The notes under the pieces are model-generated. The model did no database searches. It saw nothing but the letters and a program-made list of their open reading frames with translations, and was not told where the DNA came from. DNA of 64,000 nt from Actinomycetota bacterium (GTDB lineage: Bacteria; Actinomycetota; Thermoleophilia; Solirubrobacterales; Solirubrobacteraceae): contig JAFDWH010000021.1 in assembly GCA_018268595.1 (NCBI GenBank), positions 124,001 to 188,000 of the forward strand. The letters run 5' to 3'. The position numbers and the translations under genes were made by a program. Below, piece after piece: positions 43,496 to 61,929 of the stretch (position 1 is the first letter of the stretch; each line of letters starts with the position of its first letter).

Positions 43496-44815
43496 GTGGA
43501 GGCGTCGGCGCTTCCGGCAGCGACAGGGGCGGGCCGCCGCAGGCGCGAGCGGCTCGTCCCGCTGCTGTTCCTCGCGCCGGCGCTGATCTTCCTGCTCGTG
43601 TGGCTCGTCTATCCGACGGTCCGCACGGTCGTGCGCTCGTTCTTCGGCCGCAGCGGCAGCGACTTCGTCGGCTTCGACAACTACAAGGCGCTGTTCACGA
43701 CCGACACGCTCCGGACCGCGATCAAGAACAACGTCATCTGGGTCGCGGTCGTGCCGGCGTTCGTGACGGCGATCGGCTTGATCTTCGCGGTGCTGACCGA
43801 GCGCATCCGCTGGTCGACCGCGTTCAAGACGGTCGTCTTCATGCCGATGGCGATCTCGCTGTTCGCGGCCGGCGTGATCTGGCGCGTGATGGACCAGACC
43901 GACCCGTCGCTGGGGACCGTGAACGCGACGCTGAAGGTCGTGCACGACGCGTTCGGCTCGTCCGGGCCGCTGACGACCGCGCAGCCGTCCACGCCGGCGC
44001 TGACCGGCAGCCCGTCGAGCGGGTTCGTGCTGAGAGCGGTCGTGCGACCCGGCGGCGTGGCGCTGATGGGGCTGACCGCGATCCCGCCCGACGAGGTCCC
44101 GGCCGCCGCGCCGGACGCGGTCAGACCGGCGCCGAGAGCGGGCGCGATCGGCGGCGTCGTGTGGCGCGACTTCAAGCCGGGCGGCGGCAGACCGGGCGTC
44201 GTTGAGAGAGGGGAGCAGGGCCTCGGCGGGGTGGACGTCGAGCTGCGGCCGGCCGCCGCCGGCGGCGCGGTCGCCAGCACGACGACCGCGGCGAACGGCT
44301 CGTTCTCGTTCGGGGACGTGAGACCGGGCTCCTACCGCGTGGCGATCGCGTCCTCGACCTTCGCAGCGCCCTTCGCGGGCGTGAACTGGCTCGGCCCGAA
44401 GCTGATCACGCCGGCCGTGATGATCGCCTACGTGTGGGTGTGGGCCGGCTTCGCGATGGTGATCATCGCCGCCGGCTTGTCGGCGATCTCGCGCGAGGTG
44501 CTGGAGGCGGCGCGCACCGACGGGGCGACCGAGTGGCAGGTCTTCCGGCGGGTGACCGTGCCGCTGCTGGCGCCGGTGCTGAGCGTCGTGTTCATCACGA
44601 TGATCATCAACGTCCTGAAGGTGTTCGACATCGTGCTGAGCGTTGCGCCGCAGTCCTCGCAGGACGACGCGAACGTGATCGCGCTGGCGATGTGGCGCAC
44701 CTCGTTCGGCGGCGTCAACGACTTCGGGCTCGGCTCGGCGATCGCCGTGTTCCTGTTCGTCCTCGTGCTGCCGGTGCTGGCGCTGAACGTGCGGCGCTTC
44801 CGGCGGGAGACGTGA
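43496..44815 (+). CDS. sugar ABC permease (MalF type) with inserted SdrD-B-like extracytoplasmic domain
   Basis: This 439-aa permease has six to seven helices. It begins with an Arg-rich tail and LVPLLFLAPALIFLLVWL, and its cytoplasmic EAA loop reads EAARTDGATEWQVFRR (about 336). Between helices, residues about 158-296 form an insertion of about 140 residues outside the membrane. The last 70 of these (GAIGGVVWRDF ... RGEQGLGGVDVELRP ... TTTAANGSFSFGDVRPGSYRV) match the SdrD B-like / prealbumin-type beta domain pattern. MalF of E. coli has a P2 loop in a comparable place that contacts the binding protein, but with a different fold. Arg codons in the insert are mostly AGA (6 of 10), while none of the 21 others is. 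GTG 43496 starts four bases after the binding-protein stop. Confidence 0.9.
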   Translation: MEASALPAATGAGRRRRERLVPLLFLAPALIFLLVWLVYPTVRTVVRSFFGRSGSDFVGFDNYKALFTTDTLRTAIKNNVIWVAVVPAFVTAIGLIFAVLTERIRWSTAFKTVVFMPMAISLFAAGVIWRVMDQTDPSLGTVNATLKVVHDAFGSSGPLTTAQPSTPALTGSPSSGFVLRAVVRPGGVALMGLTAIPPDEVPAAAPDAVRPAPRAGAIGGVVWRDFKPGGGRPGVVERGEQGLGGVDVELRPAAAGGAVASTTTAANGSFSFGDVRPGSYRVAIASSTFAAPFAGVNWLGPKLITPAVMIAYVWVWAGFAMVIIAAGLSAISREVLEAARTDGATEWQVFRRVTVPLLAPVLSVVFITMIINVLKVFDIVLSVAPQSSQDDANVIALAMWRTSFGGVNDFGLGSAIAVFLFVLVLPVLALNVRRFRRET

Positions 44816-46848: not shown

Positions 46849-47571
46849 ATGACGTCGCTCTACGGCTCCGACCTCGCGCACGTGCACGACCTCGCCTTCG
46901 GCGGCTGGGCGCGCGACGCCGCGCCGTTCGTGCTGGCGCGCCTGCGGGAGGCGGAGGTCACGGACGGGCGCGTCGTCGACCTCGGTTGCGGCAGCGGCAT
47001 CTGGGCGGCGGAGCTGCTCGCCGCCGGCTACGACGTGGTCGGGGTCGACGGCTCGGCGGAGATGCTCGCGCTCGCCCGCCGGCGCGCGCCCGCGGCGCAG
47101 CTGGTGCACGGCTCGCTGCACGACGTCGCGCTGCCGCCCTGCGTGGCGGTCACCGCGCTCGGCGAGTGCGTCAACTACGGCAGGCCGCCGAGCCTCGAGC
47201 CGCTGTTCCGCCGCGTCTGGACGGCGCTGGAGCCGGGCGGCCTGTGGGTCTTCGACGCCGCCGCCCCCGGTCGCGAGCCGGCCGGCCGCAGGCGCGCGCG
47301 GCACGAGGGCGACGGCTGGGTGATGCGCGTCGAGGCGGCCGAGGATCGCGCCGCGCGCACGCTCATGCGGCGGATCGCGCTCGTGCGCGACGGGCGCACG
47401 AGCGAAGAGCGGCACGTGCTGCGGCTGTACGAGCGCGAGCAGGTGATCGACTGGCTCGAGGCGACCGGCTTCGACGTCACGACGCACGCGTCGTACGGCG
47501 CGGCGAGCGGCCTGCCGGGCGTGCACGTCTACGTCGCGCAGCGACGGGCACGCAGCGGTGGTACGGCTTGA
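46849..47571 (+). CDS. class I SAM-dependent methyltransferase
   Basis: This 240-aa soluble enzyme has motif I VVDLGCGSGIWAAELL (about 42-57), VVGVDGSAEMLALARRR with the acidic ribose-binding residue, and post-motif LEPGGLWVFDAAAPG. A C-terminal beta sheet of about 80 residues probably forms the acceptor site. The substrate is a small molecule by fold, but the specific acceptor is not recognisable. It converges with the receiver-kinase gene on the other strand, with 9 bases between the stops. Confidence 0.9.
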   Translation: MTSLYGSDLAHVHDLAFGGWARDAAPFVLARLREAEVTDGRVVDLGCGSGIWAAELLAAGYDVVGVDGSAEMLALARRRAPAAQLVHGSLHDVALPPCVAVTALGECVNYGRPPSLEPLFRRVWTALEPGGLWVFDAAAPGREPAGRRRARHEGDGWVMRVEAAEDRAARTLMRRIALVRDGRTSEERHVLRLYEREQVIDWLEATGFDVTTHASYGAASGLPGVHVYVAQRRARSGGTA

Positions 47572-47580
47572 TGCGCCGGT

Positions 47581-49275
47581 TCACGTAGGCGCCGGCCGCG
47601 TCGCGCCGGGCTCCCCCGCCGCGGCGGCGCGTCTCTCCTTCGGCAGGCGCGCGAGCGTCTCCTTGATCGCGGCGGTCCACACGAGCAGGCGCATGCGCGC
47701 CGCGGGATCGAGCTGGGTGACGCGGAACACCCGCAGCGCGTAGAGCAGGCACGTCACCGCATGCTGGCGCCTCGACACGCCCATCGTGCGGATCGCGATC
47801 CCCATCAGCGTCGCGGAGACGCGCGCCCAGTAGGGCGGGTCGGCGTCGGGGCGGCCGTCCCACCAGTCGTCGCCCGCCGAGAAGTCGTGTGCCCACAGCT
47901 TGCGCTCGATCGCCAGGTCGCGGATCGCGTGCTCGCCGACGTCGGCCCACACCGTCGGGGTCAGGCGCAGGCTCGCCTCCAGCCCGGCGAGGTCGAGCGT
48001 GACCGGGCCGCGCTCGGTGTGGCGGAAGTCGATCAGCACGATCTCGTTCGTGCTCGAGACGATCACGTTGCTGGCGTTGAGGTCGCCGTGCACGACACTC
48101 TGGTCGTAGAAGCCGCGGACGTTGCCCGCCACGAGGTCGGCGTCGACCGGCAGCTCGACGCGGCCCCCACCGGGGAAGACCAGTGCGCTGCCCGACTTGG
48201 TCGCGCCGAACGAAGCGGCGCGCCGCGTGCTGAACGCGTCCGCCTCGGCGATCACCTTGAGGGCGTCGAGGCGGTAGGCGCGCCGGAAGAAGCCGGCGAG
48301 GTCGCGCGCGCGCGGGCCGCCGCCGCGCCAGTCGCCCTCGTCGCCGAGCAGCTGCCGGATCGTCGCGTGCGCGCGCTCGTCCTGCGCGTTGAAGAGGCTC
48401 TGCAACGCGACGATGTCGCGCGGCGAGCTGCCGGCGAACGAGTAGCAGATCGCCCCGAGCGTGTCGCCGACCGCATGGCCGAGCAGCTCCACGCGGCGAT
48501 GCAGCGAGAGCCGGAAGCGCACGTAGCGGTCGTAGCGCCGCAGCTCCTCGAGCGTGTCGTGGCGCGGCCCGATCTTCACGACGCACTGGATCCCGTCGTC
48601 CTGCGCGCCCGTGCGCGGGCGGCCGTAGGCGACGATCGAGCGGCTCTTGCCGCCTTCGAGCAGCTCGAGGTCGATCGCGGCGATGTCGTCGACCGCCCTG
48701 CCCTCGTTCGCGTCGCGCTCGATGTCCTGCCCGAACGCGCTCGAGACGACGTAGTCGAGCTCCTCCACGGTGGTCGCGACGGGCCGCCCGCGCGGCGTCG
48801 TCCCGCCGCGCAGCCGGCGGCCCTGGAGCTGCTCGTAGAGCAGCTCCAGCGGGCCGACGTCGACCGGCGCCCGCAGCCACTCGAGCGCCGCAACTTCGAC
48901 GTAGTCGACGAACAGATGGTCGAAGTTCTCCTTGTCGACGGCGCCGTCGATCACGCGGTTGGCCGGGTCGAGCATGTCGAAGATGCCGGTGCGGTACTCG
49001 TTCGGCCGCCCGGTCAGCAGCAGCCGTCGGCAGCTCGGGCGGACGTCCGCGAGCAGGCGCAGGATCGTCAGCCCGTCGACGTTGGGACGCGCGGTCCGGT
49101 CGAGCTCGATGTCGACGAACGCGACGTTGAAGTAGTGGTCGGCGATCAGCGCGTCGGCCTCGTCGAGGTTGCGGCCGACCGAGACGTGGATCCCGCGCTC
49201 GGGCGCGGCCGACTCCAGCGCGATGTCGAGCAGGTCGGTGTCGTCGTCGACGACGAGCGCGCGGAAGGTCCTCAC
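47581..49275 (-). CDS. receiver domain fused to an APH-like phosphotransferase
   Basis: This 564-aa protein has an N-terminal receiver (residues 1-130: FRALVVDDDTDLL, phosphoacceptor Asp55 in VAFVDIELD, LLLTGRP, and VDKENFD where the conserved Lys lies). A linker region (about 130-250) follows, then a kinase-like domain of the aminoglycoside/choline phosphotransferase fold. That domain has VVKIGPRHDTLEEL (nucleotide-contact Lys), the catalytic loop VVHGDLNASNVIV (His396, Asp398, Asn403) and EIVLIDFRH (Asp416, metal). The two intact catalytic motifs argue for an active kinase controlled by phosphorylation of the receiver. The fold resembles the TCAD9-type kinases proposed in ternary conflict systems, a comparison from memory. 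GTG 49275 overlaps by four bases the stop of the sensor gene. Confidence 0.85.
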   Translation of the reverse strand: MRTFRALVVDDDTDLLDIALESAAPERGIHVSVGRNLDEADALIADHYFNVAFVDIELDRTARPNVDGLTILRLLADVRPSCRRLLLTGRPNEYRTGIFDMLDPANRVIDGAVDKENFDHLFVDYVEVAALEWLRAPVDVGPLELLYEQLQGRRLRGGTTPRGRPVATTVEELDYVVSSAFGQDIERDANEGRAVDDIAAIDLELLEGGKSRSIVAYGRPRTGAQDDGIQCVVKIGPRHDTLEELRRYDRYVRFRLSLHRRVELLGHAVGDTLGAICYSFAGSSPRDIVALQSLFNAQDERAHATIRQLLGDEGDWRGGGPRARDLAGFFRRAYRLDALKVIAEADAFSTRRAASFGATKSGSALVFPGGGRVELPVDADLVAGNVRGFYDQSVVHGDLNASNVIVSSTNEIVLIDFRHTERGPVTLDLAGLEASLRLTPTVWADVGEHAIRDLAIERKLWAHDFSAGDDWWDGRPDADPPYWARVSATLMGIAIRTMGVSRRQHAVTCLLYALRVFRVTQLDPAARMRLLVWTAAIKETLARLPKERRAAAAGEPGATRPAPT

Positions 49276-51638
49276 GCCTCGCCTCCGGAGCGGTCGGTCG
49301 CCGGCGCCTCGAGCGCGACCGGCAGGTGCACGCGCGCGATGAACCATCTGCTGCGGTTGTGCTCGATGTGCACGTCGCCGCCGAGCGAGCGCATCAGCGC
49401 GCCGCTCGTGTAGGCCCCGATGTGCAGGCGCCGCCCCAGCGGGAAGCGGACCGGCACGCGGTACAGGCACTCGGCCGTGTGCGCTCGCATCGCGCGCGGC
49501 ACGCGGTTGCCGATCGAGAGCGCCAGGTACTCGCGCCCGCCGGCGTCGAAGCTGTTCCAGCGCAGCCAGCCCTCGAGCTGCGATCTGAGCATCTGCCGGT
49601 GCGCGTTGCGCAGCAGCTCCTCGAACACCACGCGCAGGATCAGCGTGCGCGTGCCGGTGTGCGCGATCGACACGGCCGGCGCGTTGCGGCGCTCGAAGAT
49701 GCCGTCGAAGTTCAGCTCCTCCAGGACCTCGGCGAGGATCGCCTCGGTCGTGAGCGGCGCGTCGACGACGTCGGCCGTCCCCGGGACGATCAGGCGCAGG
49801 ATCTCGTTCGCGATCCCGTGGATCTCCACGTCGGCGCCGGCGCGCTTGCGCAGCTCTCTGACCTGCCGGAAGATCTGGTGCTGGTTGGCGGTCGCCGCGA
49901 TCGTCATCGAGAAGACCTGCTGCTCCTGGGCGCGCCGCGCGTGCTGGATCGCGAGGCCGACCTGCTCGACGATCGCGTGCGCGGTGTCGAGCGTGTCCTC
50001 GTAGCCGTAGGGAAAGCGGCTCTCGAGGTTGAGCGTCCCCGTGATGCGACCGCCGACGAAGATCGGCAGGCACAGCTCGGAGCGCGTGCCCTCGCGCACC
50101 TCCAGGTACCCGTCCAGCCGCTTGTAGCGTCTGCGCGCGGGCGCGAACTTCGTGCGGTCGAGGTAGCAGTGCTCGCCCGCGCGCGCCACCCACGCGTTGA
50201 CGCTGTGGAAGTCGCGGATCGAGATCTGCGCGTGCCGGTCGTCCATGCACGACGGCGGGTACGCGGCGAAGCGGACGAGCGTCCGCTGGTCGAGCGACAG
50301 CAGGCGCACCGTCGCCGAGCGGCTGCGCGTGAGGTCGGCGACCATCTGCAGCGTCTCGTCGATCGCGCCCTTGGCCGGCAGCGCGTCCGGCGGGATCCCC
50401 GCGCAGCCGTCGCCGTAGCTGCCGTGCAGCGTGACCGGGGAAGAGAGCGCGTTGCGGCGCGTGAGGTCCGCGAGCGAGCTCGAGAACCGCGACAGCAGCA
50501 TCTGCGTGCGCCACATGCTCAGGCGGTTGGCGATCAGCCGCAGGATCGTCACGTCGCGGTAGGTGAAGTAGCCGCGGTCGAAGGGCCGCACCTTCTCGAC
50601 GTTGATGACGCCGATCGTCGCTCCGGCGCCCGTGCGCAGGCGTGCCTGCACGATCGGCACGGCCAGCTCCGCGAAGGCGTGCTGGCCGCTTGCGAGCCCC
50701 GACGTGTGCCCGCTGCCGGGGTGCATGAGCATGAAGTCGCGCGCGTCGTTGATCACGCGTGGGCGCCGGCGCCGGTAGACCCACGCGACGACGCTCTTGG
50801 GGTCGTCGAACGGGATCGTTCTGCGCGGGCGCACGTTGCGGATCTCGGCCTCGAGCGCGAGGTCCGCGTCCTTCGTGTCGAAGTAGACGTTCCCGACGCT
50901 GCTGCCGGTCAGCTCCAGCGCCGCTTCCAGCATCAGGCGCGGGAGCGCGCTGGGGTCGAGCTGCGCGAGCTGCTGCGCGTGGTTGAACGACTCGAGCTGC
51001 TCCGTCACGGCCGGATCGAGCCGCTCGAGCGTGGTCTCGACGTCCTGCTCGGCCAGCAGGTTGCCGTGCACGACGACGGGGGCGCTCGCGTTGACCATGT
51101 ACAGCAGCTCGTCCATCGCGGCGTCGACCGCTTCGCAGGGCAGCGCCACGCCCGGGGTGTTGAGCACGACGTGGATCGCCGCCGGCACGATGCCGCGATC
51201 GGCGGCGGCCGGGCCGACCGCCGGACTGCGGCTGAGGATCGCCACCGGGCCCGACAGCAGCGGCGCGACGGAGGAGAACGGCGACTGCGCCCGCAGCGCG
51301 CTCGCGAACTGCTCGGGCGCGACGCGAGCCAGCTCGAAGTCGGTGAGCGTGGAGACGATCGGGCCCGGTCGCGCCGCCAGCGCGGCGAGGCGGCCGCGAT
51401 GGCGGTGCGTCATCGACCAGTGACGGTGCGACGGCAGCAGCAGCGAGTGGAACAGCGTCTCCCCGCGGAAGGCGATCAGCAGCGCCGCCTCGGCTTGCGC
51501 CTGCTCGCGCAGCCGGCTGACGTGAGCTTCGATCGCCTCGGCCTCGCAGTAGCGGCCGAACAGCAGGTACTCGGTCGGCGTCCAGGCGGCGTGCGGACGC
51601 GCGGCGAAGGACCGGCTCTGAGCGGTCACGGCGAGCAT
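49272..51638 (-). CDS. GAF-GAF-ATPase sensor protein, partner of the receiver-kinase
   Basis: This 788-aa soluble protein starts MLAVTAQSRSFAARP. An N-terminal region of about 225 residues of unknown fold (WSMTHRHRGRLAALAARPGP) precedes GAF domain 1 (about 228-375), GAF domain 2 (about 423-563) and a C-terminal GHKL-type ATPase-like domain. The latter has an N-box-like VVFEELLRNAHRQM (about 667-680) and an RLHIGAYTSGALMRSLGGDV segment in the position of the G2 box. Its GxGxG loops are degenerate, and no phosphoacceptor His of the HisKA type is visible. It may sense a small ligand through GAF and either phosphorylate the receiver of the downstream protein in an unorthodox way or regulate it by binding. 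The 4-base GTGA overlap with the next gene implies tight coupling. Confidence 0.85.
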   Translation of the reverse strand: MLAVTAQSRSFAARPHAAWTPTEYLLFGRYCEAEAIEAHVSRLREQAQAEAALLIAFRGETLFHSLLLPSHRHWSMTHRHRGRLAALAARPGPIVSTLTDFELARVAPEQFASALRAQSPFSSVAPLLSGPVAILSRSPAVGPAAADRGIVPAAIHVVLNTPGVALPCEAVDAAMDELLYMVNASAPVVVHGNLLAEQDVETTLERLDPAVTEQLESFNHAQQLAQLDPSALPRLMLEAALELTGSSVGNVYFDTKDADLALEAEIRNVRPRRTIPFDDPKSVVAWVYRRRRPRVINDARDFMLMHPGSGHTSGLASGQHAFAELAVPIVQARLRTGAGATIGVINVEKVRPFDRGYFTYRDVTILRLIANRLSMWRTQMLLSRFSSSLADLTRRNALSSPVTLHGSYGDGCAGIPPDALPAKGAIDETLQMVADLTRSRSATVRLLSLDQRTLVRFAAYPPSCMDDRHAQISIRDFHSVNAWVARAGEHCYLDRTKFAPARRRYKRLDGYLEVREGTRSELCLPIFVGGRITGTLNLESRFPYGYEDTLDTAHAIVEQVGLAIQHARRAQEQQVFSMTIAATANQHQIFRQVRELRKRAGADVEIHGIANEILRLIVPGTADVVDAPLTTEAILAEVLEELNFDGIFERRNAPAVSIAHTGTRTLILRVVFEELLRNAHRQMLRSQLEGWLRWNSFDAGGREYLALSIGNRVPRAMRAHTAECLYRVPVRFPLGRRLHIGAYTSGALMRSLGGDVHIEHNRSRWFIARVHLPVALEAPATDRSGGEA

Positions 51639-51750: not shown

Positions 51751-52527
51751 ATGACGAACAGAACGGACACGCGTGAGTGGGACGCCGGCGCCTACGACAC
51801 GCTCAACGCGCCGATGACGGCGCGCGGGAACGACGCCGTCGCGCGCCTCGAGCTGCGCGGCGACGAGACGGTGCTGGACGCCGGCTGCGGCACCGGGGAG
51901 GTGACGGCGACGCTGCTGGAGCGCCTGCCGCGCGGCCATGCGATCGCCTTGGACGGCTCGCGCGCGATGCTCGACGCCGCGCGCGAGCGCTTCGCCGCCG
52001 ACGCGCGCGTGTCGTTCTTGCACGCCGACCTCGGCGAGCCGCTGACCGGCCCGCTCGGCGGCGCGCGCGTGGACGCGATCGTCTCGACCTCGACGTTCCA
52101 CTGGGTGCGCGACCACGACGCGCTGTTCCGCCATCTCGCCGGCGCGCTGACGCCCGGCGGCCAGCTCGTCGTCGACTGCGGCGGGGCCGGCAACATCGCG
52201 GCGGTGCTGGACGCGCTGCGCGCGCTCGGCCACCACGAGCACCCGTGGACGTACGCCGGCGTCGGGGAGACCGAGGCGCGGCTGCGCGCGGCCGGCTTCG
52301 ACCGCACGGACGTGCGGCTCGTGCCGCGCACGACCCGCTTCGAGAGCGACGAGCAGCTCGAGCGCTTCCTCACGAGCGTCGTGCTGCGCACGTTCGTGAC
52401 GGAGCTCGGCGACGAGGCCGGCGGCGCGCTCGTGCGCGACGTCGCGGCGCGGCTGCCGGCGCGCGAGATCCGCTGGGTGCGGCTCGAGGTCGTCGCGCGG
52501 CTCAGCGACGCGGGCGCGGCTGCGTGA
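51751..52527 (+). CDS. class I SAM-dependent methyltransferase (trans-aconitate methyltransferase-like)
   Basis: This 258-aa soluble enzyme has motif I VLDAGCGTGEVTATLLERL (about 42-60), AIALDGSRAMLDAARERF, and the FHWVRDHDALFRHLAGALTPGG segment characteristic of the Tam/trans-aconitate 2-methyltransferase group. The C-terminal half resembles that family but without a diagnostic residue I can name. It is divergent from the GAF sensor gene with a 112-bp gap and overlaps by 26 bases the convergent hypothetical gene. It is not closely similar to the methyltransferase at 46849 beyond the fold. Confidence 0.9.
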   Translation: MTNRTDTREWDAGAYDTLNAPMTARGNDAVARLELRGDETVLDAGCGTGEVTATLLERLPRGHAIALDGSRAMLDAARERFAADARVSFLHADLGEPLTGPLGGARVDAIVSTSTFHWVRDHDALFRHLAGALTPGGQLVVDCGGAGNIAAVLDALRALGHHEHPWTYAGVGETEARLRAAGFDRTDVRLVPRTTRFESDEQLERFLTSVVLRTFVTELGDEAGGALVRDVAARLPAREIRWVRLEVVARLSDAGAAA

Positions 52528-54843: not shown

Positions 54844-56301
54844 TCAGCCGTCCACCAGCAACCCGCGCATCGGCCCGACGAGCCGCTTCGTGCGCCGCGA
54901 CACCGCCGGCAGCTCCATCAGCCGGTGCGTGCGCGGCAGGCCGGCGCGGTGCCGGCGCAGCTGCTCCTGCGCGATCGGGCGCCAATGCTCGTCGATCGTG
55001 CGCGCCGGATCGCCCGCGACCTGCTCGAGCGGCAGCTCGAGGTGCTCGGACCACAGCTGCAGGCGCGTGCGTCGCGCCAACTCCGCGTCGTCCGTGAGCA
55101 CGTTCATCTCGGTGTCGTTGAACAGCGAGTGCTCGTTGAGGTTCGCCGAGCCGACCGTCAGCCAGCGGTCGTCGACGATCCCCACCTTCGCGTGCACGTA
55201 GAGGGGATGCGTGCGCGTGCCGGCGTGGGACGAGACGGTCGCGGCGAGCAGGCGGTCGCTGCCGCCGGCCGCCTCGACGAGCCGCCCGAGCTGGCCGCGC
55301 GTCGTGTCGGCGCCGTTGTTCGGGCGCGCGGGCAGGAGCAGCAGCAGGCGGAAGCCGGGGGTCGGCGGGTCGCGCAGCTTCGCGGCCAGCAGCTCGACGA
55401 TCTCGGTCGACCACAGGAACTGGTTCTCCAGGTAGACGAGCCGCTGCGCCGCGCGCAGCGCGCGCACGTACGCCTCGAAGATGCGGAAGTCGCCGCGCGG
55501 GACGAACTCGTACGTTCCGTCGGGAACCGTCCGCAGCACCTGGACGGTCGTCTCGCCCGCCGGCGGCTGCGGGCGCGGGGGCGGCAGCGGCTCGCGGGCG
55601 ACCTCCTGCCAGCGCGCGCGGAAGTGCTCGGCGACGTCGGCGACCGCCGGCCCGTGCAGGCGGGTCGCGACGTCGTGCCAGCCGAGGCGGCCGACGGGCG
55701 GGTGCGCGCGCACGTCCCAGCGGTCGCCCGACAGCGAGGTGAGGTCGATCCCGCCGACGAACGCGACCTCGTCGTCGACGATCACGAGCTTCTCGTGGTG
55801 GCAGTGCATCGTGCGCTCGCGCGCGTCGAGCGCGCATCTGATGCGCGTGCCGCGCGTGAGCTGCTCGCGGACCCGCTTCACGTCGGAGCGCTTCGGCTCG
55901 AACACGGGCGCCGGCGGGCCGGCCCACACGAGCACGCGCACCGCGACGCGCTCGGCCAGCTCGGCGAGCACGTCGCGCAGCGTGCTCGGGGAGCCGCCGT
56001 CGCGCTCGATCAGGAACGCCGGCGTGACGTGCCAGCCGGCGATGTGCACGTGCGATCTGGCGCGCTTGAGCGCCGCGCAGATCTCGCCGATCGCGTGCTC
56101 GCCGTCGATCAGCACGTCGAGGCGGTTGCCGTCGCGCGGCGGCGGGTCGCCGGCCGCCCACAGCCCCTCGTCCGGCGGGTCGAACACGCGCGCGTGGCCG
56201 AGCTTCGCCAGCCGCCGGCGGTGGTGGTCGCGCACCTGGCGCTCGAGCTGCTGGCCGACGACCCGGTCGAGGCGGGCGATCGTGTCGGGGAGGACGCTCA
56301 T
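54844..56301 (-). CDS. phospholipase D-family protein (cardiolipin synthase-like)
   Basis: This 485-aa protein carries two HKD motifs: HHEKLVIVDDEVAFVGGIDLT (near residue 167) and HAKVGIVDDRWLTVGSANLN (near 367), each with the His, Lys and Asp needed for the phosphatidyl-His intermediate. There are no clear membrane helices at the N-terminus, unlike classical cardiolipin synthases. It may act as a soluble or peripheral phospholipase D or phosphatidyltransferase. It diverges from the KAP NTPase gene with 84 bases between. Confidence 0.9.
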   Translation of the reverse strand: MSVLPDTIARLDRVVGQQLERQVRDHHRRRLAKLGHARVFDPPDEGLWAAGDPPPRDGNRLDVLIDGEHAIGEICAALKRARSHVHIAGWHVTPAFLIERDGGSPSTLRDVLAELAERVAVRVLVWAGPPAPVFEPKRSDVKRVREQLTRGTRIRCALDARERTMHCHHEKLVIVDDEVAFVGGIDLTSLSGDRWDVRAHPPVGRLGWHDVATRLHGPAVADVAEHFRARWQEVAREPLPPPRPQPPAGETTVQVLRTVPDGTYEFVPRGDFRIFEAYVRALRAAQRLVYLENQFLWSTEIVELLAAKLRDPPTPGFRLLLLLPARPNNGADTTRGQLGRLVEAAGGSDRLLAATVSSHAGTRTHPLYVHAKVGIVDDRWLTVGSANLNEHSLFNDTEMNVLTDDAELARRTRLQLWSEHLELPLEQVAGDPARTIDEHWRPIAQEQLRRHRAGLPRTHRLMELPAVSRRTKRLVGPMRGLLVDG

Positions 56302-56385: not shown

Positions 56386-59001
56386 GTGGGACCGCGGGAC
56401 GAGCCGTTCGAGGCGCTGCTGGCCGACGGGCAGATGGCCTATGCGGCGTTCCATCGGGCACTCGCAGCCCCCGCGGCGCACGAGCGCGACATGCGCGGCC
56501 GGGGGCTGGACGAGCTGTTCGGACCCGAGACGCTGCCGCCGCCGCATCCGTCGCTCCCGCTGCGGGTGCTGGCGAGCCTCGCCCATCACGCGCGCAACGG
56601 CAACCTCGAGACGCGCTACCTGTTCGAGCCGGTCTCGAACGAGGGCCTGCGCGCCCTCAGCGACTGGCAGGTCCGCAACTACGAGCAGCTCCAGCGCTAC
56701 GTCCCCGAGGCGATCCGGGCAGAGCCGCTGTGGCTGACGTGGGAGCCGCCGCACTCGGACGCGCCGTACGGGGCCGGACGCCTCGAGCTCGACGAGCTGC
56801 GGCACGCGGTCGGGCTGTTCCTCGCCGCGAGCCACGCGTCGTCGGCGGTGATGGGGCTCGTCTTCGTGCTGCTGCGCGACTGGTACCTCGACCTCGTCCG
56901 CCCGCTCGAGCAGCTGCGCGGCGACGCCGGGGGGCTCGTCGCGCGCGCGTGCGAGATGGCCGTCAGCGGCCGCCGCGACCCCGACCTCGACTGGGCGGTC
57001 GTGCTCGCGCACGAGCAGGAGGCGCGCGAGCGGCTGGGCACGCCGACCTCCGCCTGGACGCTCCTGCACGCCTGCGCGTCGGCCGACGCGCTCGAGCTGC
57101 TCGACCTGTCGCTGACGGGCGAGCGCGTCGACGAGGCGCTGACGGCGCTGGTGCCCGAGCAGGCGCGGCGCGGCAAGCCGGCCGAGCAGCCGGCGGACGA
57201 CCCGGCCGACGTGGGCGACGCGGCGGCCGCGCGCGGCGACGCCTTCCGTCCCTCGACGGCGATCTCGACCGACGCCTGGACCGTCGAGGACCGGCTCCAA
57301 TACGACGTCTACGCGGAGGCGATCACGCGCTTCATCCTCGACGAGCGCACGCGCGCGCCGCTGACGATCGGGATCAAGGCGCCGTGGGGCGCCGGCAAGA
57401 CGTCGCTGATGCGGATGATCCGCCGGCGGCTCGACCCGGAGGCGGACGGCGCCGGCCCCGCGCGCGGGGCGGACGGCGAGCGCCTGTCGAACCGCGAGGT
57501 GCTGAAGACGACGGCGCTGCCGCGCGAGCAGGCGGCCGAGCAGCTCGCGATCGACGGCGTCGACACGCGCGCGCAGCGGACCAGCGTGTGGTTCAACGCG
57601 TGGAAGTACCAGAGCGGCGAGCAGCTGTGGGCCGGCCTCGCGCACGCGATCGTCTCGCAGGTCGAGGCGCGCATGAGACCGTGGGAGCGCGAGCGCTTCT
57701 GGGCGAGCCTCAACATCCGCCGCGTCGACCTGACCGCCGTGCGCCGCCGCATCTACCGCGCGTTCCTGCTGCGCGCGATCCCCGACCTGCTGCTGGTGCC
57801 GCTCGCGCTGCTGCTCGCGCTCGCGACCGCGCTCGTCGCGTCGGCCGCCGCGGGCGGGCTGACCGCGGTCGCGACCGCGCTCGGGCTCGGGCTCGACGCG
57901 GCGCGCCGCTGGCGCGCCTTCGCAGGCGAGAGCGTCGCCGCGTCCGACCCGAAGCTGGTCGCCGACCCCGGCTACGAGGACCGGCTCGGCTTCCTGCACC
58001 TCGTCCACGAGGACATGCACCGGATCCTCGCGCTCGTCGCCTCGCCGGAGCGCCCGCTCGTCGTCTTCGTCGACGACCTCGACCGCTGCTCGTACACGAC
58101 CGTCGTGCAGGTGATCGAGGGGCTCAACACGTTCCTCGCGGGCGACTTCGAGAGCTGCATCTTCGTGATCGCGATGGAGCCCGACCTCGTCGCCGCGCAG
58201 ATCCACGTCGCCTACGCCGACCTGTTCGCGCGGATCGCCGAGCGCGACGGCAGCGCCGGCAGCGACCTCGCGTGGCGCTTCCTGGAGAAGATGGTGCAGC
58301 TGCCGCTGGCGCTCCCGCCGCCCGGCGAGCCGCAGATCGAGCGCTACGTGCAGTCGCTCGTCGCGAGCGAGGCGCAGGCTCAGGTGGTCGAGCTCGACGA
58401 CGACGACGAGCAGCTGGTGGCGGCGCGCTCGGCGATCCGGAGCGCGCGCGTGAGCGACTCGCTCGGCGGCATCGCGGACGCGCTCGAGCGGGCGAGCGAG
58501 ACGCTCGACCGGGGGGCGGGGCAGGAGGAGGCGTATCGGCGGGCGCTGCTGCAGCGCGCCGCGCGGATCGAGTACGCCAGCGAGTTCGACGACGGGCATC
58601 CCGAGGTGCGCGCGATGCTCCAGCGCCACGCCGCGGCGCTGCACCACAACCCGCGCGAGATCAAGCGCTTCGTCAACGTCTTCCGCTTCTACGCCTACGT
58701 GCAGTTCTGGCGCACGACCGACGGCCTGCCCGCGCCCGACCTCGACGGCGCGGCGAAGCTCGCGACGCTCGCGGTCCGCTGTCCGCACCTGCTGAGCGCG
58801 CTCGGCGCGGTGGTCGAGGCGGACGGCGAGCGACGGCAGCTGCTCGCGTGGCTGGAGCGGATCGACGGCGACGCGACGCTGGAGGAGAAGGTGCTCGGGC
58901 AGGTGCCCGGCTACGTGCGCGACGCGCTCGCGGAGCCGGGCCTGCGGTCGCTGATCGTCGCCCCACCGGCCGTCGGGGAGCAGGCGAGCGGGTTCCTGTG
59001 A
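56386..59001 (+). CDS. KAP-family P-loop NTPase with predicted membrane helices
   Basis: This 871-aa protein starts at GTG 56386 with GGAGG 11-15 bases upstream. The N-terminal 290 residues are of unknown fold (RYLFEPVSNEGLRALSDW). The P-loop is GIKAPWGAGKTSLMRMI (about 329-342). Two hydrophobic helices are inserted between Walker A and B (about 458-502), and Walker B is LVVFVDDLDRCS (about 556-566), the KAP signature. NPREIKRFVNVFRFY near the C-terminus is also typical. KAP NTPases are membrane-bound and some have been linked to phage exclusion and conflict systems (the prototype is phage T7 PifA). It is convergent with sbcC, with 18 bases between the stops. Confidence 0.9.
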   Translation: MGPRDEPFEALLADGQMAYAAFHRALAAPAAHERDMRGRGLDELFGPETLPPPHPSLPLRVLASLAHHARNGNLETRYLFEPVSNEGLRALSDWQVRNYEQLQRYVPEAIRAEPLWLTWEPPHSDAPYGAGRLELDELRHAVGLFLAASHASSAVMGLVFVLLRDWYLDLVRPLEQLRGDAGGLVARACEMAVSGRRDPDLDWAVVLAHEQEARERLGTPTSAWTLLHACASADALELLDLSLTGERVDEALTALVPEQARRGKPAEQPADDPADVGDAAAARGDAFRPSTAISTDAWTVEDRLQYDVYAEAITRFILDERTRAPLTIGIKAPWGAGKTSLMRMIRRRLDPEADGAGPARGADGERLSNREVLKTTALPREQAAEQLAIDGVDTRAQRTSVWFNAWKYQSGEQLWAGLAHAIVSQVEARMRPWERERFWASLNIRRVDLTAVRRRIYRAFLLRAIPDLLLVPLALLLALATALVASAAAGGLTAVATALGLGLDAARRWRAFAGESVAASDPKLVADPGYEDRLGFLHLVHEDMHRILALVASPERPLVVFVDDLDRCSYTTVVQVIEGLNTFLAGDFESCIFVIAMEPDLVAAQIHVAYADLFARIAERDGSAGSDLAWRFLEKMVQLPLALPPPGEPQIERYVQSLVASEAQAQVVELDDDDEQLVAARSAIRSARVSDSLGGIADALERASETLDRGAGQEEAYRRALLQRAARIEYASEFDDGHPEVRAMLQRHAAALHHNPREIKRFVNVFRFYAYVQFWRTTDGLPAPDLDGAAKLATLAVRCPHLLSALGAVVEADGERRQLLAWLERIDGDATLEEKVLGQVPGYVRDALAEPGLRSLIVAPPAVGEQASGFL

Positions 59002-59019: not shown

Positions 59020-61929
59020 TCAGGCGGCCAGCGCTGCCCGCTCGTGCTCGACGCGCGAGCCGCTGCGGCCCTTGACGACGCGCAGGCGCGCGGGGATCCG
59101 CTGGCGCAGCTCCGCGACGTGGGAGACGATCCCGACCGTGCGGCCGCCCTCGCGCAGCTGGTCGAGCACGTCGAGCACCTCGTCGAGCGTGCGCTCGTCG
59201 AGCGAGCCGAAGCCCTCGTCGACGAACAGCGTCTCGAGGCGGCTGCCGCCGGCCTCGGCGGCGACGACGTCGGCCAGGCCGAGCGCGAGCGCGAGGCTGG
59301 CGAGGAACGTCTCGCCACCGGACAGCGTGGCGGGCGAGCGCTGCTGGCCGGTCCAGCCGTCCACGACGCGCAGCTCCAGCCCGCCGCGGCGCTCCTTGCG
59401 GGCGCGCTCGTCGGTGTGGACGAGCTGGTAGCGGCCGTTCGACATCTGCTCGAGGCGGACCGTCGCCGCCTGGGCGACCTCCTCCAGGCGCGCGGCGAGC
59501 ACGTAGGCGGACAGGCGCATGTGCAGGCGGTTGCTTGCGCCGGTGCCGTCGACGAGGCCGGCCAGCTCCTTGATCGTGCGCTCGCGCTCGGCGACCGGGG
59601 CGAGGTCGGCGAGGGCGTCGTCCAGCTCTGCGGCGAGGCGCCTGAGCGCGGCCACGCGCTGGTCGGCGAGCGCGTGGCGGCGGGTGGCGGCGTCGTCGGC
59701 GGCGACGGCTGCGGTGGCTTGGGCTTCGAGGGTGGGGAGGGGGGTGGGCGCGGCCGGGGCGGCCGCGTCGGCCTGCTCGGCGCCGGTCTCGGCCAGCTCG
59801 TGCGCGAGCTGCTCGGCGCGCGCGCGGCGCTCGGCGAGGCCGCGGTCGTAGGCCGCGATGCGGTCGGCGAGCGCCTGCTGTTCGTCGCGGTTGAGCAGGG
59901 CCGCGCGGGCGGCTTGCGCGTCGTCGAAGCCGGCCTCGCGGGCGGCCGCTTCCTGCTCGGCGGCGTCGGCCTGCGCGCGCAGCGCGTCGGCGCGCGCGGC
60001 GATCGAGGCGTCCTCGCCGCGGGCGGCGGCCACGCGCTCGCGGTCCGCCTCCAGCGCTCCGCTGCGCTCGGCGAGCGTGGCGCGGGCGGCGGCTTCCTCG
60101 CGCTCGGCCTGCTGGCGCGCCTGCTCCTGCTCGGTCGTGCGGGTCGCGAGCGCAGCGAGCGCCTGCTGCGCCGCCGCCAGCCCGCCTGCGGTCGTGCGCG
60201 CGTGTGCGAGCGCGGCGTCGAGCCGCTCGGCCTCCGCGGCGAGCGCGTCGGCCGGCGCCTCGCCGGCGACGGCGCGGGCGGCGGCGAGCGCGGCGTCGAG
60301 CGTGGCGAGGGTGCGTTCGGCCTGCTGGCGCTCACGCGCGGCCTGCTCGTGCGCCGCCTGAGCGTGCTGCTCGCGCTCGGCGAGCGGGGTGGGCGCGGCG
60401 GGCGTGCCCGGGGCGGCGTGCGCCGGCGCCGGGTGGTCGGTCGCGCCGCACACGCTGCACGGCTCGCCGGGCTGCAGGCCGGCCGCCAGCTCGGCGGCCA
60501 TGCCGGCGAGCCGGCGCTCGCGCAGGTCGAGCCATGCGGCGTGGGCCTGCTGCTCGGCGTCCACGGCGTGCCGGCGCCGCTCGTCCGCCGTGGTGCGTTG
60601 CGCGAGCAGGCGGTCGCGCTCGGCCGCCTGCTCGGCGCGCTGCCGTGCCGTTTGGGCCTCGGCGTGGAGGCGCTCGGCGCCGGCGGCCCCCTCGCGCGCT
60701 GCCTGCACGGTGGCATCGAGGGTTGCGCGCTCGTGCGCGGCCTCCTCGATCGCGCTGGTCGCCGCTCGCGCCCGGGCCCCGGCCTTCTCGGCGCTCCGTG
60801 CGAGCGCCGCCAGCTGCTCGTCCGCCGCGGCCAGCCGCGCCTCGACGGCCACGAGCGTGTCGAGCGCGCCGGCGGCCTCGCGCGCCGCCGCCGCCCGGTC
60901 GCGCAGCTCGGCCGGCGAGCTGTGTCCTTCCGGGGGTCCATACGACCCCCTAAGGGACACAGCTCGCGTGAGGAGCGCGGCGAGCGGCGCGGCGCGGCGG
61001 GCGGCGGCGAGCTGGGCGTCGGCCGCGTCGCGCTCCGGGCGTCTCGACTCCCAGCGGGCGAGCCGCTCGACGGCCTCCGCGTGGGCGGCGCGGCGCTCTG
61101 CGGCGGCGCGGCCCTCCGCCAGCGCCGCCTCCGCGCGGGTGCGGGCGGCGGTGGCGGCGCGCTGCGCGTCGGCCGCGCTCACCAGCTCCGCCTCCGCGCG
61201 CACGCCGAGGCCGGCGACCCACTCGGCGTGCAGGTCCAGCTCCTCGGGCGCCGGCTCGCCGGCCACCTCGGCGACCTTCGCGACCAGCTCGCGCTCCGCC
61301 TGCGAGGCCGCCTGCAGCTCCGACCAAGCGGCCTTCCTGCGGTCGTTCAGCCAGTGCTCCACGCGCGCGAAGCGGTCGGTGCCGAAGAGGCGTTCGAGGA
61401 CCGCCTGGCGCTCGCCGCTGTCCGCACGGAGGAACGTGGCGAACTCGCCCTGCGGCAGCAGCACGACCTGGCAGAACTGGTCGCACGTCATGCCGAGCAG
61501 CGCGTCCAGCTCGTGGCGCGCCTCGTCCGGGCGGGCGGCGAGGACGGTCCACTCGCCGGACGCCGCGTCCAGCTCCTCGACCGTGCAGGCCGGCCCCTCT
61601 CTCGTCATCCCCTCGCCGCGCAGCTTCGGCCGCTCCTGCGGCGGGCGGCGCACCACGCGCAGACGCCGCTCGCGCAAGGTCACCTCCAGCTCGACCTCCG
61701 TGCGGACCTCCGGTGCGGCGTGGTCGGAGCGCAGGCGGGCATCCCGCGCGCGCGCGCCCGGGACCTGGCCGTACAACGCGAACGCGACCGCGTCGAGCAG
61801 CGTCGTCTTGCCCGCGCCGGTGTCGCCGTGCAGCAGGAACAGGCCGGACTCGGCGAGCGCGTCGAAGTCGACCGTCTCGCTGCCGGCGAACGCCTGGAAG
61901 GCGGTCAGGCGCAGGCGATGGAGCCGCAC
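59020..61929 (-). CDS. sbcC: SbcC (Rad50-like) DNA repair ATPase
   Basis: This 969-aa SMC-like ATPase forms the SbcCD nuclease with the upstream gene product. The start is GTG 61929, 65 bases after the sbcD stop. It has Walker A LHGDTGAGKTT (34-43), two long Ala/Glu/Arg-rich coiled-coil arms flanking the zinc hook PCSVCG (Cys491, Cys494), signature LSGGETFLASLALALG and Walker B LFVDEGFGSLDE. The complex opens hairpins and double-strand breaks. The first arm contains an in-frame palindromic insertion (residues about 322-338, LRGSYGPPEGH). This is ironic, since palindromes are SbcCD substrates. Confidence 0.95.
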   Translation of the reverse strand: MRLHRLRLTAFQAFAGSETVDFDALAESGLFLLHGDTGAGKTTLLDAVAFALYGQVPGARARDARLRSDHAAPEVRTEVELEVTLRERRLRVVRRPPQERPKLRGEGMTREGPACTVEELDAASGEWTVLAARPDEARHELDALLGMTCDQFCQVVLLPQGEFATFLRADSGERQAVLERLFGTDRFARVEHWLNDRRKAAWSELQAASQAERELVAKVAEVAGEPAPEELDLHAEWVAGLGVRAEAELVSAADAQRAATAARTRAEAALAEGRAAAERRAAHAEAVERLARWESRRPERDAADAQLAAARRAAPLAALLTRAVSLRGSYGPPEGHSSPAELRDRAAAAREAAGALDTLVAVEARLAAADEQLAALARSAEKAGARARAATSAIEEAAHERATLDATVQAAREGAAGAERLHAEAQTARQRAEQAAERDRLLAQRTTADERRRHAVDAEQQAHAAWLDLRERRLAGMAAELAAGLQPGEPCSVCGATDHPAPAHAAPGTPAAPTPLAEREQHAQAAHEQAARERQQAERTLATLDAALAAARAVAGEAPADALAAEAERLDAALAHARTTAGGLAAAQQALAALATRTTEQEQARQQAEREEAAARATLAERSGALEADRERVAAARGEDASIAARADALRAQADAAEQEAAAREAGFDDAQAARAALLNRDEQQALADRIAAYDRGLAERRARAEQLAHELAETGAEQADAAAPAAPTPLPTLEAQATAAVAADDAATRRHALADQRVAALRRLAAELDDALADLAPVAERERTIKELAGLVDGTGASNRLHMRLSAYVLAARLEEVAQAATVRLEQMSNGRYQLVHTDERARKERRGGLELRVVDGWTGQQRSPATLSGGETFLASLALALGLADVVAAEAGGSRLETLFVDEGFGSLDERTLDEVLDVLDQLREGGRTVGIVSHVAELRQRIPARLRVVKGRSGSRVEHERAALAA
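60916..60966. repeat. 51-bp palindrome inserted in frame in sbcC
   Basis: Bases 60916-60938 and 60944-60966 form 23-bp arms (outer CGAGCTGTGTCC, inner GGGGGTC) with three mismatches around CATAC. The AT content is higher than in the surrounding coiled-coil sequence. In the minus-strand frame it supplies 17 residues, including the Gly/Pro run SYGPPEGH that would break a coiled coil. Confidence 0.85.

What the first reader, a model, noticed from the sequence alone, without database searches (positions are those of the whole stretch)
47581..51638. GAF-GAF-ATPase sensor coupled to a receiver/APH-like kinase: unusual signalling module
The two genes overlap by four bases. The first has GAF domains and a degenerate GHKL ATPase without HisKA. 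The second has an intact receiver (Asp55) and an intact APH-type catalytic loop (HGD-N and D). A receiver controlling a small-molecule or protein kinase instead of DNA binding is rare. Similar kinases (TCAD9 type, from memory) have been proposed in conflict systems.
Basis: partly seen in the sequence, partly recalled or inferred. Interest (0 to 1): 0.72.

Follow-up and report, generated by a model that had tools for sequence, protein, structure and literature searches.

The report
Sensor-switched kinase pair, mobile relatives
Two overlapping genes encode a sensor protein and a receiver-switched enzyme kinase; the kinase belongs to the same rare family as the last gene of an apparently uncatalogued three-gene unit carried by plasmids in many bacteria, which looks like a stress or anti-invader alarm.

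Summary
Sensor (49272-51638, minus) and receiver-kinase (47581-49275, minus) overlap by GTGA. The receiver has its full acid pocket and Asp55. The kinase is a TCAD9/APH-type kinase (Pfam 73 bits, cut-off 40) with HGD398-x4-N403, D416, K234 and E244.

The main new result lies outside the window. Eleven loci, most on plasmids of Actinomycetota and Alpha-, Beta- and Gammaproteobacteria, carry a fixed operon: SMC/RecN-like ATPase, histidine kinase with intact motifs, receiver-TCAD9 kinase. The three proteins co-diverge (r 0.88-0.91, 0/10000 permutations), so they are one unit. PADLOC 2023 has no matching model. The window carries a rare two-gene cousin (2 of 232 genomes of its order): no ATPase gene, and GAF domains plus a very degenerate ATPase in place of the intact histidine kinase.

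Not shown: that the sensor phosphorylates anything, what the kinase phosphorylates, or any anti-phage effect. The structure models failed. "Degenerate GHKL" is only weakly supported. Best reading: a two-component-like unit whose output is a receiver-gated kinase, probably a stress or conflict response.

The parts
49272..51638 (-). Sensor gene, 788 aa: N-terminal region (about 1-225; possibly another GAF-like fold by inspection, not tested), two GAF domains, long helix, then about 200 aa resembling a degenerate histidine-kinase core (candidate His587 in NQHQIF, N-box EELLRNAH 673-680, lost DxGxG at 710-715, lost GxGxG at about 740)
49275..50201 (-). C-terminal part of the sensor: end of the second GAF, helix, degenerate GHKL-like segment; homologous to the G007 sensor (29%)
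49272..49275 (-). GTGA: 4-base overlap of sensor stop (TGA) and kinase start (GTG)
47581..49275 (-). Receiver-kinase gene, 564 aa: REC domain (about 1-125) followed by TCAD9/APH-type kinase (about 180-460)
48901..49275 (-). Receiver domain with D10/D11, D55, T88, K115
47896..48738 (-). TCAD9/APH-type kinase domain with K234, E244, HGD398, N403, D416 and the conserved LE(A)SL motif

Best explanation
The pair is a two-component-like signalling unit whose output is an enzyme kinase instead of a DNA-binding domain. The GAF-bearing sensor detects an intracellular ligand or state and acts on the receiver of the co-translated second protein. The receiver gates an APH/TCAD9-fold kinase, which then phosphorylates a still unknown small molecule or protein. 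The kinase belongs to the same family as the last gene of a mobile three-gene unit (SMC/RecN-like ATPase, histidine kinase, receiver-TCAD9 kinase). There the ATPase probably senses DNA or another assault and the histidine kinase relays it. The window is a rare variant in which GAF domains replace the ATPase input and the histidine-kinase core is degenerate. The overall role is most likely a stress or conflict response. Shown: gene structure, domains, intact receiver and kinase residues, family membership, co-inheritance of the three-gene unit. Inferred: signal flow, gating, substrate, conflict role.
For: Gene overlap and coding frames. TCAD9 over cut-off. Same two genes, overlapping, in a second Solirubrobacterales genome at 30-31% identity (L079/G007). 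Profile comparison of window+G007 with 12 other family members: probability 99.65, E 4.4e-25, covering receiver and kinase. All 14 sequences keep receiver Asp and kinase HxD-x4-N and ID. Fixed ATPase-HK-receiver-kinase order with overlapping or abutting genes in 11 loci. Co-divergence r=0.89, 0.91, 0.88, 0/10000 permutations each. HK with invariant H-E, N-box, DxGxG and G2 motifs in those loci. Conflict-type surroundings: an authentic Hachiman pair 1 kb downstream in Caballeronia (HamA2 504 bits, HamB2 1409 bits); toxin-antitoxin genes flanking in Rhodococcus, Vibrio, Leclercia, Piscirickettsia; RES toxin-like gene shortly after the module in G007. The ATPase shows partial likeness to defence ATPases Ppl, LmuB, AriA, GajA.
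Against: The sensor of the window and G007 has lost the DxGxG and GxGxG motifs, so it may not make phosphate at all; its GHKL relationship is weak (one of two members no better than shuffles; hhalign probability 23-30%). No structure could be obtained (pLDDT 32 and 38). Toxin-antitoxin and defence genes are common on plasmids anyway, and no enrichment test was made. The window's own neighbours are an ABC sugar transporter, methyltransferases, PLD, KAP NTPase and SbcC, not a clear defence island. No relative in 50,697 phage records or in viral contigs.
Confidence: 0.52

Rival explanations
1. The sensor is a pseudo-histidine kinase (or Spo0B-like phosphotransferase): it makes no phosphate, and controls the receiver-kinase by direct contact, while the receiver is phosphorylated by another histidine kinase, by acetyl phosphate, or not at all.
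For: DxGxG and GxGxG motifs are lost in both members of the branch while the N-box is kept in the window; the candidate His differs in context (H-Q-I in the window, H-E-L in G007). No HATPase_c match even at E<=10.
Against: The receiver keeps every residue needed for phosphorylation, and related loci pair it with a histidine kinase whose motifs are intact. Some bona fide kinases of the AgrC type also lack DxGxG (own knowledge).
Confidence: 0.35
2. A small-molecule kinase of ordinary metabolism or antibiotic modification (APH-like) that happens to carry a receiver.
For: APH family over its cut-off; the HGDLHGxN loop is typical of small-molecule kinases.
Against: Present in only 2 of 232 genomes of the order and absent from six same-genus genomes, so not housekeeping; the co-inherited operon has no metabolic genes; TCAD9 scores far above APH.
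Confidence: 0.13
3. A decaying remnant of the three-gene operon that lost its ATPase and its histidine-kinase activity.
For: ATPase gene missing; sensor core motifs lost; P. salmonis plasmids show that the operon can decay (the ATPase region is annotated as small fragments).
Against: Two genomes keep both genes open, overlapping and with intact receiver and kinase residues at about 30% identity, i.e. long purifying selection; codon-position bias is strong; GAF domains were gained rather than lost.
Confidence: 0.1
4. A component of a VMAP (vWA-MoxR) ternary conflict system, as the Pfam name of the kinase suggests.
For: Pfam name TCAD9; literature mentions active APH kinases and receivers among effectors of such systems.
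Against: No vWA, MoxR or VMAP gene among the window neighbours scanned or annotated in the plasmid loci.
Confidence: 0.04

Closest known systems
TCAD9 (PF19974), ternary complex associated domain 9
   Same: The kinase domain matches it at 73 bits (cut-off 40); the plasmid homologues at 44-60 bits.
   Different: Named for vWA-MoxR-VMAP systems (PMC7159879, PMC10910872); here it sits behind a receiver and next to a sensor, with no vWA or MoxR partner seen.
AAA(SMC-like)-HK-REC/TCAD9 plasmid operon found here
   Same: Same receiver-kinase family over its full length (hhalign 99.65, E 4.4e-25), same sensor-then-receiver-kinase order with overlapping genes.
   Different: The window lacks the ATPase; its sensor has GAF domains and degenerate core motifs instead of a HEAT-like N-terminus and an intact histidine kinase.
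Detocs (from memory: two-component phage defence, DtcA sensor kinase, DtcB receiver buffer, DtcC receiver-effector)
   Same: A sensor kinase controls a receiver fused to an enzymatic effector.
   Different: Effector is an APH/TCAD9 kinase, no stand-alone receiver, an SMC-like ATPase in the full operon. Resemblance recalled, not tested by profile.
Lamassu and other SMC/OLD-like ATPase defence systems
   Same: The operon ATPase has partial matches to LmuB, Ppl, AriA, GajA at its P-loop and signature ends.
   Different: Partner genes are a histidine kinase and a receiver-kinase, not nucleases; matches are partial.
Classical two-component system
   Same: Sensor plus receiver with complete acid pocket, D55, T88, K115.
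   Different: Output is a kinase, not a DNA-binding or cyclic-di-GMP domain; the window's sensor core is degenerate.

Membership tests
TCAD9 kinase family (PF19974) | Pfam score above the curated cut-off | tested here: met
   73.2 bits against 40
TCAD9 kinase family (PF19974) | Catalytic D, N and metal-binding D kept | tested here: met
   D398, N403, D416 in the window; same columns in all 14 sequences
AAA-HK-REC/TCAD9 operon family (defined here) | Receiver-kinase homologous over full length | tested here: met
   hhalign probability 99.65, E 4.4e-25, 364 columns
AAA-HK-REC/TCAD9 operon family (defined here) | SMC/RecN-like ATPase gene directly upstream | tested here: not met
   upstream gene is a divergently oriented methyltransferase; present in 11 other loci
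AAA-HK-REC/TCAD9 operon family (defined here) | Histidine kinase with H-E, N-box, DxGxG and G2 motifs | tested here: not met
   DxGxG and G2 lost in window and G007
Canonical two-component system | Receiver with acidic pocket, phospho-Asp, Thr/Ser and Lys | tested here: met
   D10/D11, D55, T88, K115
Canonical two-component system | Histidine kinase with phosphoacceptor His and ATP-binding core | tested here: inconclusive
   candidate His587; no HATPase_c match at E<=10; collinear N-box and G2-end, 0 of 717 scored shuffles for the window but 23 of 650 for G007
VMAP ternary conflict system | vWA, MoxR and VMAP components together | tested here: not met
   none among neighbouring genes scanned
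Detocs | DtcA, DtcB, DtcC set with stand-alone receiver | not tested
   no Detocs profile identified in PADLOC 2023 output; features recalled from memory; no stand-alone receiver gene beside the module
Anti-phage defence system | Protects a host against phage | not testable with these tools
   needs phage challenge

The most novel reading that the evidence does not exclude
The ATPase-histidine kinase-receiver/TCAD9-kinase operon is an undescribed mobile immune or stress system in which a DNA- or damage-sensing SMC-like ATPase triggers a phosphorelay that switches on an APH-fold kinase effector; the window shows a branch re-wired to GAF ligands.
Probability: 0.35. Interest if true: 0.82.

Novelty: new variant of a known kind. 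Interest (0 to 1): 0.62.

Why it matters
Response regulators normally drive transcription or cyclic-di-GMP turnover. A conserved, mobile unit that ends in a receiver-gated kinase would be a new output type and, if it is a defence system, a phosphorelay-controlled effector that phosphorylates something essential. The catalytic residues are explicit, so D55 and D398 mutants make gating and activity directly testable.

Tried and rejected
VMAP membership: rejected for lack of vWA/MoxR/VMAP neighbours. Housekeeping function: rejected by patchy presence. Structure prediction of receiver-kinase and sensor C-terminus from 2-row alignments gave pLDDT 32 and 38 and was not used for fold searches. Direct scans of genome contigs with the window kinase found nothing, with window+G007 only G007. 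Viral contigs, phage records and E. coli complete genomes: no relatives by the searches made; the E. coli ones used DNA, not protein. Searching with receiver included was swamped by ordinary response regulators. TCAD9 hits below cut-off in 106 actinobacterial genomes are mostly matches to the generic HGD loop, not family members. PDB sequence searches gave receivers among the 60 rows shown for the receiver-kinase and nothing useful for the sensor. Literature searches for TCAD9 found only incidental mentions; none was found for a REC-APH kinase operon.
Full report
Check of the observation. Third-codon-position GC of 0.96 and 0.97 on these frames, against 0.69-0.75 on the overlapping antisense ORFs, shows that these are the coding frames. 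Pfam finds GAF_2 and GAF in the sensor, two stretches each, and TCAD9 (73.2 bits, cut-off 40), APH and a receiver in the second protein.

Anatomy of the kinase protein. The receiver has D10/D11, D55, T88 and K115. The kinase domain has K234, E244, HGD398, N403 and D416. All 14 homologues aligned keep the receiver Asp, HxD-x4-N and the ID motif; the ATP-lysine is Arg in two (G569, Shinella). The proposed refutation 'catalytically dead in most homologues' is therefore not met.

Anatomy of the sensor. The C-terminal 200 residues do not match HATPase_c at E<=10. There are motif-level signs of a degenerate histidine-kinase core: N-box EELLRNAH and the end of the G2 box SLGGDVHIE fall in the right order. 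A local profile scores the window above all 717 scored shuffles, but the G007 homologue is exceeded by 23 of 650. Two classical histidine kinases are hit by the window segment at E about 5e-4 per genome. DxGxG is lost in both members, and the candidate phosphoacceptor His (H587, H-Q-I; H-E-L in G007) is ambiguous in alignment. Absence of a Pfam HisKA hit is not informative, since the related kinases with visible H-E boxes lack it too. I treat 'degenerate GHKL' as likely but unproven.

Relatives of the window pair. The kinase is the only over-cut-off TCAD9 protein in its genome and is absent from six same-genus genomes. In 232 genomes of the order only one other has it, G007, identified as a Solirubrobacterales MAG (PLFX01000043). 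G007 has the same two genes, also overlapping, at 30-31% identity along their length, followed about 65 bases later by a gene with a sub-threshold Xre/MbcA/ParS antitoxin match and then a RES-domain gene over its cut-off.

The wider family. Two other actinobacterial genomes, G568 and G569, have a receiver-TCAD9 kinase overlapping a histidine kinase with intact motifs, with an SMC/RecN-like ATPase gene before it. A plasmid search with the G569 protein found 46 records with near full-length homologues. The same three genes in the same order lie on plasmids of Caballeronia, Rhodococcus, Shinella, Phaeobacter, Klebsiella, Vibrio, Leclercia, Pantoea and Rhizobium. In Piscirickettsia plasmids the ATPase region is annotated as fragments. 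Genes mostly overlap or abut. Pairwise identities of the three proteins over 11 loci correlate at 0.88-0.91, with none of 10000 permutations as high, although mean identity is only 29-35%. This is one old, laterally moving unit. Profile comparison places the window and G007 proteins in the same family over receiver and kinase.

Mechanism. In the full operon the straightforward reading is: ATPase input, histidine kinase, receiver phosphorylation, kinase output. In the window the ATPase is absent and the sensor carries GAF domains, so ligand or state sensing by GAF probably replaces it. Whether this sensor still phosphorylates the receiver is open; hence the pseudo-kinase rival at 0.35. The substrate is unknown. 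The conflict role rests on surroundings: Hachiman beside the Caballeronia copy, toxin-antitoxin genes beside several others, mobility, patchiness, and partial likeness of the ATPase to defence ATPases. None of this is proof, and no enrichment test was made.

Comparison with what is known. Kaur et al. (PMC7159879) report a few active APH-superfamily kinases and sporadic receivers as VMAP-system effectors, and no histidine kinases among the vWA-associated effectors. The paper PMC10910872 mentions TCAD9 beside CRISPR-linked VMAP genes. PADLOC 2023 gives no model fitting the three genes. Detocs is the nearest known principle, from memory. I found no paper on a receiver-APH kinase operon in the held library; newer catalogues outside it were not available.

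Verdict. Real, conserved and unusual; the window copy is a rare divergent branch. The more interesting object is the three-gene plasmid unit that it points to.

Noticed in passing
L080 12790-16337 (Caballeronia plasmid pSBC2-6): A Hachiman defence pair (HamB2 1409 bits, HamA2 504 bits) lies about 1 kb from the ATPase-HK-receiver-kinase operon, with a site-specific integrase on the other side.
   Followed up: partly
L079 10163-11304: Downstream of the G007 copy: a gene with a sub-threshold Xre/MbcA/ParS antitoxin match and a RES-domain gene over its cut-off, a possible toxin-antitoxin pair in the same orientation, starting about 65 bases after the kinase.
   Followed up: partly
window 56386-58998, plus strand: KAP-family P-loop NTPase (106 bits) with partial likeness to QatA and PifA, between a PLD-domain gene (54847-56301) and SbcC (59023-61929).
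   Followed up: partly
window 43496-44812, plus strand: ABC-transporter permease whose N-terminal part carries SdrD_B / carboxypeptidase-regulatory-like beta domains, probably an Ig-like periplasmic loop as in MalF.
   Followed up: no
window 46849-47568 and 51751-52524, plus strand: Two SAM-dependent methyltransferases flank the module on both sides; the first has no match at E<=1e-15 in six same-genus genomes, so the flanks may be variable too.
   Followed up: partly
L087 and L093 (Piscirickettsia salmonis plasmids): 36 plasmid records keep the receiver-kinase, but in the two examined the upstream ATPase region is annotated as small hypothetical fragments, i.e. the operon appears to be decaying there.
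   Followed up: partly
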